In this document: one piece after another, positions 39,841 to 40,814 of the stretch
Layout of the letters: every line of letters begins with the position of its first letter
Position numbering within the stretch: the stretch's first letter is position 1
DNA from: Solirubrobacteraceae bacterium
GTDB taxonomy: Bacteria; Actinomycetota; Thermoleophilia; Solirubrobacterales; Solirubrobacteraceae
Reading direction: 5' to 3'
Length of the DNA: 64,000 nucleotides
Assembly (NCBI GenBank): GCA_017882445.1
Contig: JADGPK010000002.1
Coordinates: forward strand, 62,001 to 126,000
The notes under the pieces: generated by a model
Told to the model about the DNA's origin: nothing
The model's database searches: none
Seen by the model: the letters and a program-made list of their open reading frames with translations, nothing else
Translations under genes and position numbers: made by a program

Positions 39841-39936
39841 TGCGCCCGGAGGGAATCGAACCCTCGGCCTGCGGCTTGAAAGACCGCTGCTCTTTGGCTC
39901 CCCGAAGAGAACCGTTGACCACTGAGCTACGGGCGC
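39841..39936 (-). tRNA. tRNA-like gene with anticodon UUC (Glu) and a hairpin insertion in the D-loop
   Basis: The cloverleaf is complete on the minus strand: acceptor GCGCCCG/CGGGCGC, D-stem GCTC/GAGC, anticodon stem GCGGT/GCCGC with loop CTTTCAA (anticodon UUC), variable loop AGGCC, and T-arm GAGGG-TTCGATT-CCCTC. CCA is not encoded. The length is 96 nt instead of about 75. The D-loop has 31 nt, because about 21 nt are inserted after AGTGGTCAA and fold into a 7-bp helix GGTTCTC/GGGAGCC capped by TTCG. D-stem C11-G24 and the five-nt variable loop do not match usual tRNA-Glu identity. Decoding function is therefore uncertain. Confidence 0.75.
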
Positions 39937-39983
39937 GCGCTTTTGATGTCTGACCGACTCGACGTTCTGCCGAGCAGCCTATT

Positions 39984-40814
39984 CTAAGCAGGCTCGCCGC
40001 GCAGGCCGAACACCCGCCGTGAGTTTCCCGCGAGGTAGAGCCCGCGTGTCTCCTCGTCGAGACCCAGCTCGTCCAGGCCCTCGAGCGCTCGCGCGGGGAG
40101 GATCATGGGGTAGTTGCTCCCGAACAGGACCTTGCGGCGTCCGCTGCGGGTCTTCATGTAGGAGACCAGCTCGGCGGGCAGGCGCCTGGTGGTGTAGGCC
40201 GAGGTGTCGATGAAGACGTTCTCGTGCTTGCGTGCGACCGCGATCATCTCCTCGGTCCAGGGATAGCCGATGTGCCCGCCCACGATGACCAGCTCGGGGA
40301 AGTCCAGGGCGATCTGATCGACGTAGGGGATCGGCCGCCCGGTCTCCGACGGACGCAGCGGACCGGTGTGGCCGACCTGCGTGCAGAACGGCACGCCGAG
40401 TTCGACGCAGGCGGCGTACAGCGGGTAGTAGCGGCGGTCGGTCGGCGGGGCTTCCCACAGCCACGGAAGCATGCGCAGCCCGATCAGGCCGAGCTCGTTC
40501 ACGCAGCGGCGCAGCTCCCTCACCGCGTCCATCGGCCTGTCGAGTCCCACGGCCGCCATGCCCGCGAAGCGATCGGGGTGCGCCCGCACCCACCCGGCGA
40601 CCTCGTCGTTTGAGATCAGGGCGCCCTCCCGCGGAGCGTGCCAGGCCGTCAGCAGGCCGAAGCCCACGCCCGCGCCATCCATCGCCTGGACGGTCGCCCC
40701 GATCGGCACCTCTCCCTCGGGCACCTCGCCGCCGGTCCAGCGGCGCAGCGACTCGAACATGTCGTGCTCCAGAAAGCGCCGGGTCGGATGCTGCATCCAA
40801 GCATCGACGATCAT
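39984..40814 (-). CDS. Amidohydrolase-2 (ACMSD-like) family protein with altered metal site
   Basis: TIM-barrel protein of 276 aa related to ACMSD and other decarboxylase-type amidohydrolases. LIGLRMLPWLWEAPP, VGHTGPLRPSETGRPIPYVDQIA, VIVGGHIGYPWTEEM and NVFIDTSAYTTRRLP are recognisable blocks. The N-terminal HxH metal motif is absent (VDAWMQHP). The C-terminal motif, commonly FGSDYP, reads FGSNYPM, so the usual Asp is Asn. The chemistry may thus differ from that of typical members, although I recall DAWMQHP-type members in other actinobacteria. The tRNA-like gene follows on the same strand. Confidence 0.82.
   Translation of the reverse strand: MIVDAWMQHPTRRFLEHDMFESLRRWTGGEVPEGEVPIGATVQAMDGAGVGFGLLTAWHAPREGALISNDEVAGWVRAHPDRFAGMAAVGLDRPMDAVRELRRCVNELGLIGLRMLPWLWEAPPTDRRYYPLYAACVELGVPFCTQVGHTGPLRPSETGRPIPYVDQIALDFPELVIVGGHIGYPWTEEMIAVARKHENVFIDTSAYTTRRLPAELVSYMKTRSGRRKVLFGSNYPMILPARALEGLDELGLDEETRGLYLAGNSRRVFGLRGEPA

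What the first reader, a model, noticed from the sequence alone, without database searches (positions are those of the whole stretch)
39841..39936. tRNA-like gene with a stable hairpin inserted in the D-loop
All four arms of a tRNA are intact and anticodon UUC is read, but the D-loop is 31 nt because about 21 nt folding into a 7-bp helix with a TTCG cap are inserted. D-stem and variable loop do not fit normal tRNA-Glu identity. It could be a second, specialised Glu-type tRNA, for example a donor for tRNA-dependent biosynthesis, a processed insertion, or a tRNA-derived regulator.
Basis: partly seen in the sequence, partly recalled or inferred. Interest (0 to 1): 0.75.

Follow-up and report, generated by a model that had tools for sequence, protein, structure and literature searches.

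The report
Five-armed tRNA replaces normal glutamate tRNA
Three genera of uncultured soil bacteria appear to have lost the normal transfer RNA that reads the glutamate codon GAA and to rely on an oddly built one with an extra hairpin arm, a type of RNA also carried by viruses, although nobody has yet shown it working in a cell.

Summary
Window 39936-39841 (-) encodes a complete tRNA, anticodon UUC (Rfam tRNA, 66 bits), whose 31-nt D-loop contains a 7-bp UUCG-capped hairpin. The same gene is in 35 of 39 genomes of three Solirubrobacterales genera (g1; g41, g43) in two families. All seven hairpin pairs change on both sides with 96% of cells paired, so the hairpin is under selection.

It is not a second, specialised tRNA-Glu. 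In 22 near-complete carrier genomes it is the only UUC tRNA found; the ordinary tRNA-Glu(UUC), present in all 11 control relatives, is missing, while tRNA-Glu(CUC) remains. GAA still means glutamate. So it most likely is the sole GAA decoder, although it lacks the U11-A24, U13-G22:A46 and no-47 identity elements of E. coli tRNA-Glu and its body resembles tRNA-Arg. Carriers have one glutamyl-tRNA synthetase and no GlnRS.

Related D-hairpin UUC tRNAs occur on 13 IMG/VR viral contigs; in two arrays of about 29 tRNAs it fills the otherwise empty UUC slot. The synthetase tree needs two separate acquisitions. Spread by phages and escape from tRNA-cutting nucleases is plausible but untested. No expression or charging data exist.

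The parts
39841..39936 (-). D-hairpin tRNA(UUC), 96 nt, no encoded CCA, A73
   Evidence: Rfam RF00005 66.2 bits; 35 of 39 genomes of three genera
39930..39936 (-). acceptor stem 5' strand (GCGCCCG); pairs with 39842-39848
   Evidence: 100% paired in 21 sequences, 4 of 7 pairs with changes on both sides
39924..39927 (-). D-stem 5' strand (GCUC); pairs with 39889-39892 (GAGC)
   Evidence: invariant in 21 sequences
39893..39923 (-). 31-nt D-loop, with A14, G15, G18, G19 and A21 kept
   Evidence: sequence; conserved AGUGGU...A flanks
39894..39917 (-). 24-nt insertion between U20 and A21 (CAAC-GGUUCUC-UUCG-GGGAGCC-AA)
   Evidence: sequence; cmscan insertion
39896..39913 (-). inserted hairpin: 7-bp stem (39907-39913 with 39896-39902), UUCG loop 39903-39906
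   Evidence: all 7 pairs have changes on both sides, 95.9% of cells paired
39871..39887 (-). anticodon arm (GCGGU CUUUCAA GCCGC)
   Evidence: 98.1% paired, 5 of 5 pairs covary
39878..39880 (-). anticodon UUC, followed by A37
   Evidence: sequence; CUUUCAA invariant in 21 aligned sequences
39849..39865 (-). T-arm with UUCGAUU loop
   Evidence: 100% paired, 4 of 5 pairs covary
39981..39986 (-). putative -10 element UAGAAU (in TGCTTAGAATAG), about 45 nt upstream
   Evidence: TTAGA(A/T)TA-like element at similar distance upstream of several other g1 copies; inference

Best explanation
This is the organism's tRNA-Glu(UUC): the only tRNA able to read GAA codons, charged with glutamate by the single, non-discriminating GluRS. 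It does not have the body of the usual tRNA-Glu(UUC) but a different, tRNA-Arg-like class I body that carries UUC and an extra (fifth) hairpin arm growing out of the variable part of the D-loop at the outer elbow. It has displaced the ancestral gene in three genera. The hairpin most likely stays in the mature tRNA. Shown by sequence: structure, conservation, covariation, absence of any other UUC tRNA, GAA = Glu, one GluRS, presence in viral tRNA arrays. Inferred: expression, charging with Glu, hairpin retention, and the reason for the hairpin (favoured: a changed elbow and D-arm surface that escapes tRNA-targeting nucleases or toxins, the type being spread by phages).
For: tRNA fold 66 bits. 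Own genome: about 44 other distinct tRNAs, Glu-CUC among them but no other UUC. 22 near-complete carrier genomes: every real UUC tRNA is the D-hairpin type or a 3' fragment of it; 11/11 control genomes have a canonical tRNA-Glu(UUC). GAA aligns to Glu in 71% of 221 conserved positions versus 62% for GAG. Present in 21/24 g1, 11/12 g41, 3/3 g43 genomes, the four misses being 58-78% complete; in no other genus of the order or of the 128 genera sampled in the class. Hairpin covaries. One gltX, no glnS, gatB present. Viral contigs L359 and L372: arrays with Glu-CUC where the D-hairpin tRNA is the only UUC.
Against: No expression, charging or tRNA-seq data. It lacks U11-A24, U13-G22:A46 and the missing position 47, major GluRS determinants in E. 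coli (PMC9976931), and no GluRS residue is shared only by carrier lineages. Nearly all genomes are MAGs, so absence of the canonical gene rests on repeated absence. The hairpin could still be removed by an unknown processing step. Viral D-hairpin tRNAs with other anticodons exist (CCU, UGC), so the fold is not strictly tied to glutamate.
Confidence: 0.8

Rival explanations
1. The hairpin is a GluRS identity element or an antideterminant against ArgRS and others, needed because the body is not a tRNA-Glu body, rather than a means of nuclease escape.
For: The body is closest to tRNA-Arg in the same genome (54-55 of 72 positions, identical first 18 nt to Arg-CCG) and lacks canonical Glu D-arm elements; the hairpin is kept in every Glu-type copy.
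Against: Hairpin sequence varies freely (only pairing is kept); no carrier-specific GluRS residues; viral D-hairpin tRNAs with CCU and UGC anticodons exist.
Confidence: 0.3
2. The insertion is a tiny intron or processed spacer that is cut out, leaving a 72-nt tRNA.
For: Without the 24 nt a normal-sized tRNA results.
Against: Far too small for a self-splicing intron; bacteria lack the archaeal-type tRNA splicing endonuclease (general knowledge); both the stem pairing and the flanks (CAA...AA) are conserved.
Confidence: 0.07
3. A decaying tRNA gene or a mobile-element-borne tRNA relic without function.
For: 3' fragments of the gene recur nearby in several genomes, as at integration sites.
Against: Arms and hairpin covary across 21 sequences; no other GAA decoder was found; promoter-like elements upstream.
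Confidence: 0.03
4. An extra tRNA-Glu for a side pathway (for example tetrapyrrole synthesis) or for regulation, with GAA read by another tRNA.
For: Unusual body; Glu-tRNA is used outside translation in many bacteria (general knowledge).
Against: No other UUC tRNA was found in 22 near-complete genomes, and the remaining tRNA-Glu has CUC, which should read only GAG. Dual use cannot be excluded.
Confidence: 0.06

Closest known systems
Canonical bacterial tRNA-Glu(UUC)
   Same: Anticodon U34-U35-C36, A37, G1-C72; same decoding role by inference
   Different: Relatives have GCCCCCAUGGUGUA...-type genes with U11-A24, U13-G22 and 4-nt variable loop; here C11-G24, C13-G22, 5-nt variable loop, plus D-loop hairpin
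tRNA-Arg(CCG/ACG) of the same genome
   Same: Identical acceptor stem and first 18 nt (CCG), same D-stem
   Different: Anticodon UUC, no C35 and no A20 (Arg determinants, general knowledge), 24-nt insertion
Alloacceptor tRNA remoulding / anticodon shifts (metazoan mitochondria PMC4783518; eukaryotes PMC3923123)
   Same: A tRNA closer to another alloacceptor takes over an anticodon and the ancestral gene is lost
   Different: Bacterial chromosome, with a new structural arm, apparently twice, and shared with viruses
Phage tRNAs that evade tRNA-targeting defences (PMC10264068, PMC11555353, PMC12409363)
   Same: Altered tRNA carried in phage tRNA arrays; AriB is modelled to contact D-loop U16-U17
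   Different: Described escapes are base changes near the cleavage site, not an added arm; no nuclease identified here
tRNA-Sec and other non-canonical tRNAs (PMC7609411)
   Same: Departure in the D-arm used for special recognition
   Different: tRNA-Sec lengthens the D-stem and shortens the D-loop; none of the passages read describes a hairpin within the D-loop

Membership tests
Elongator tRNA (Rfam RF00005) | Four-arm cloverleaf with conserved tertiary-core residues | tested here: met
   66.2 bits end to end; U8, A14, G15-C48, G18, G19, T54-T55-C56, A58 present; arms covary
Elongator tRNA (Rfam RF00005) | Transcribed, CCA-added and used on the ribosome | not testable with these tools
   no RNA data
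tRNA-Glu(UUC) by function | Anticodon UUC and sole reader of GAA, with GAA = Glu | tested here: met
   (comparative evidence only)
tRNA-Glu(UUC) by function | Charged with glutamate | not testable with these tools
   inferred from GAA = Glu
Canonical tRNA-Glu by descent/identity set | U11-A24, U13-G22:A46, no residue 47 (E. coli set, PMC9976931) | tested here: not met
   C11-G24, C13-G22, five-nucleotide variable loop AGGCC
Canonical tRNA-Glu by descent/identity set | U34, U35, C36, A37 and G1-C72 | tested here: met
   sequence
Intron-containing tRNA | Known group I or II intron, or BHB-type insert | tested here: not met
   24 nt only; Rfam reports only tRNA in the window
Alloacceptor-remoulded tRNA | Ancestral same-anticodon gene lost | tested here: met
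Alloacceptor-remoulded tRNA | Descends from a tRNA of another alloacceptor family | tested here: inconclusive
   Arg-like body by pairwise identity only, no tree
Defence-evading phage tRNA | Resists a tRNA-targeting nuclease | not testable with these tools
   viral occurrence only

The most novel reading that the evidence does not exclude
A five-armed tRNA-Glu that evolved in a phage-host arms race: phages carried it as a nuclease- or toxin-resistant replacement, and it twice displaced the essential chromosomal tRNA-Glu(UUC) of soil Solirubrobacterales, which now decode every GAA with it through a GluRS that does not need the usual D-arm identity set.
Probability: 0.3. Interest if true: 0.9.

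Novelty: new variant of a known kind. Interest (0 to 1): 0.78.

Why it matters
A housekeeping tRNA is among the most conserved parts of a cell. Here a structurally unusual one has apparently replaced an essential isoacceptor in three genera, in two separate events, and the same type travels in viral tRNA arrays. If confirmed it shows that a bacterial ribosome, EF-Tu and GluRS accept an additional arm at the elbow, gives a natural case of tRNA takeover in bacteria, offers a scaffold for orthogonal tRNAs, and makes the question why phages carry tRNAs directly testable. ARAGORN misreads or skips it, so such tRNAs may be under-reported.

Tried and rejected
BLAST with one canonical gene proved too insensitive for family f3 (it missed U32-type genes later found by pattern), so a pattern covering all UUC tRNAs was used and the doubtful hits were re-read. 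A dedicated second GluRS: rejected, one gltX in carriers. Parallel GluRS changes in the two carrier lineages: none. Co-transfer of GluRS with the tRNA: rejected, the GluRS tree follows taxonomy. GAA reassignment: rejected. Annotated phage records: only 3' halves of other tRNAs match. Literature searches for D-loop insertions, Solirubrobacter tRNAs and non-canonical tRNAs found no description; most subscription papers are not held, so this is weak evidence of novelty.

Full report
Observation. The reverse strand of 39841-39936 reads GCGCCCG UA GCUC AGUGGU-CAAC-GGUUCUC-UUCG-GGGAGCC-AA-A GAGC A GCGGU CUUUCAA GCCGC AGGCC GAGGG UUCGAUU CCCUC CGGGCGC A. cmscan matches RF00005 end to end at 66.2 bits, E 3.4e-12, treating the middle of the D-loop as insertion. 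ARAGORN reports tRNA-??? with anticodon GGAG at a misplaced position. The fold is more stable than all 200 shuffles. The single-sequence MFE pairs the D-loop somewhat differently from the 7-bp hairpin, but the covariation below supports the hairpin. The D-loop is 31 nt; the extra 24 nt sit between U20 and A21.

Conservation. BLAST finds 82-98% identical copies over the full length in most genomes of the same genus. A pattern demanding a D-loop at least 10 nt too long plus UUC finds it in 35 of 232 genomes of the order: 21 of 24 in genus g1 (the window's genus, family f1), 11 of 12 in g41 and 3 of 3 in g43 (both family f3); the four genomes of these genera without it are 58-78% complete MAGs. 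A version without the anticodon, over 399 genomes and 128 genera of the class, again finds only these three genera. A scan of about 85,000 species genomes gives 38 contigs, mostly labelled Solirubrobacterales, Solirubrobacteraceae, Thermoleophilia or Actinobacteria/Actinomycetota; three carry other labels (Chlamydiae, whose contig length equals a g1 contig; Alphaproteobacteria; Acidimicrobiaceae), probably naming or binning errors. These scans need TAGCTCA...GAGC, so more divergent relatives could be missed.

The hairpin is selected. In 21 distinct sequences from hosts and viruses, all seven hairpin pairs have changes on both sides and 95.9% of cells pair; for the whole structure 20 of 28 pairs have changes on both sides (shuffles 10.0 +/- 1.3), covariation score 0.496 against 0.165 in shuffles and at most 0.116 when slid. 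RNAalifold, without being told, draws the same hairpin except one pair. The fifth pair is not a standard pair in six sequences. The sequence itself is free (GGUUCUC/GGGAGCC, GGGUCCC/GGGGCCC, UCCAACC/GGGUGGA, GGGCUUU/GAGGCCC), the flanks CAA...AA are nearly fixed.

It is the only UUC tRNA. The window's genome (about 95% complete) has about 44 other distinct tRNAs: tRNA-Glu(CUC) is canonical; no other tRNA bears UUC. A BLAST with the canonical gene of a sister genus finds it only outside the three genera. Because that search missed U32-type genes in family f3, every UUC anticodon-plus-T-loop was sought in 22 carrier genomes (20 of them at least 90% complete, two 87-89%) and 11 controls: all controls have a canonical tRNA-Glu(UUC); in carriers the only tRNAs are the D-hairpin type or its 3' fragments, and the doubtful hits were fetched and are not other tRNAs. 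Other genera of f1, f3 and f2 carry the canonical gene.

GAA means Glu. In window and G009 genes aligned with G184 (a genome with the canonical tRNA), GAA faces Glu in 71% of 221 well-aligned positions, GAG in 62% of 1254; GAA makes up 14% of Glu codons. CUC should read only GAG (established decoding rules). So the D-hairpin tRNA must read GAA and, since GAA = Glu, must carry Glu. This last step is inference.

Charging problem. In E. coli the strong determinants are U34, U35, C36, A37; U11-A24, U13-G22:A46 and lack of 47 are major ones (PMC9976931). The first set is present, the second absent. The body is closest to tRNA-Arg of the same genome (55, 54 and 55 of 72), a similarity, not a demonstrated descent. 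Carrier genomes have one GluRS (gene missing or split over contigs in a few incomplete MAGs; a second, short gltX-like gene in G014), no GlnRS above cut-off, and GatB, so the GluRS is taken to be non-discriminating. No GluRS column separates carriers from non-carriers.

Evolution. On the GluRS tree, g1 groups with its family and g41 plus g43 with theirs; the carrier label needs two changes, also when only well-supported branches count. Two gains, or one gain and a transfer, fit. Viral contigs supply a possible vehicle: 12 IMG/VR contigs carry D-hairpin UUC tRNAs (L353 is the least typical, and L360 and L364 carry the same sequence), a thirteenth (L372) has U32; cmscan confirms those tested. 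L359 (29 other tRNAs called by ARAGORN) and L372 (28 others) include Glu-CUC and no other UUC. Neighbouring genes include phage-type helicase, DNA methyltransferase, ribonucleotide reductase, ParB-like and tail proteins. Two viral contigs carry a D-hairpin tRNA with anticodon CCU and one with UGC. Hosts of these viruses are unknown.

Why a hairpin? Position 20 lies at the outer elbow, where an extra helix can project without breaking the D-loop/T-loop contact (established tRNA structure). Phage tRNAs are proposed to resist host tRNA nucleases by changes near the anticodon (PMC10264068), and AriB of PARIS is modelled to touch D-loop U16-U17, with U16C impairing cleavage (PMC12409363). A hairpin there could spoil such recognition. 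This is the favoured but untested reason (about 0.35-0.4); a synthetase identity or anti-identity role is the main rival (0.3).

Verdict. Real, conserved, structurally unusual, and by comparison the essential GAA-decoding tRNA of three genera. New variant of a known kind: it is a tRNA, but I know of no described bacterial elongator tRNA with a conserved hairpin arm in the D-loop, and the open-access searches found none.

Noticed in passing
L399 1945-2018 and 18933-18959; L402 1651-1724 and 7625-7651; L400 1577-1603 and 2685-2711; L171; G012:C70:48052; G200:C208:17002: 3' halves of the D-hairpin tRNA recur, in several genomes in direct orientation 1-17 kb from the gene, as at attachment sites of integrating elements; stretches between the copies hold defence-type genes (DruA, HerA with NurA-like, DUF4143/PDC-S01, GmrSD_N) and AbiEii lies just beyond one. 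No integrase was recognised by a simple motif search.
   Followed up: partly
L365 2151-2248, L366 3503-3600 (anticodon CCU); L369 2235-2329 (anticodon UGC): Viral D-hairpin tRNAs with Arg and Ala anticodons, so the fold is not confined to UUC.
   Followed up: no
G205:C7:25923 and G205:C32:10278: One g43 genome carries two different D-hairpin UUC tRNAs.
   Followed up: no
L372 5452-5539 and 6699-7089: Viral contig with about 29 tRNAs also has a tRNA-Sec and a tmRNA match.
   Followed up: no
g1, g41, g43 genomes: The short second gltX-like gene (GluQ-RS length) of many relatives is missing in most carrier genomes (exception G014); some non-carriers lack it too.
   Followed up: no
   Followed up: yes
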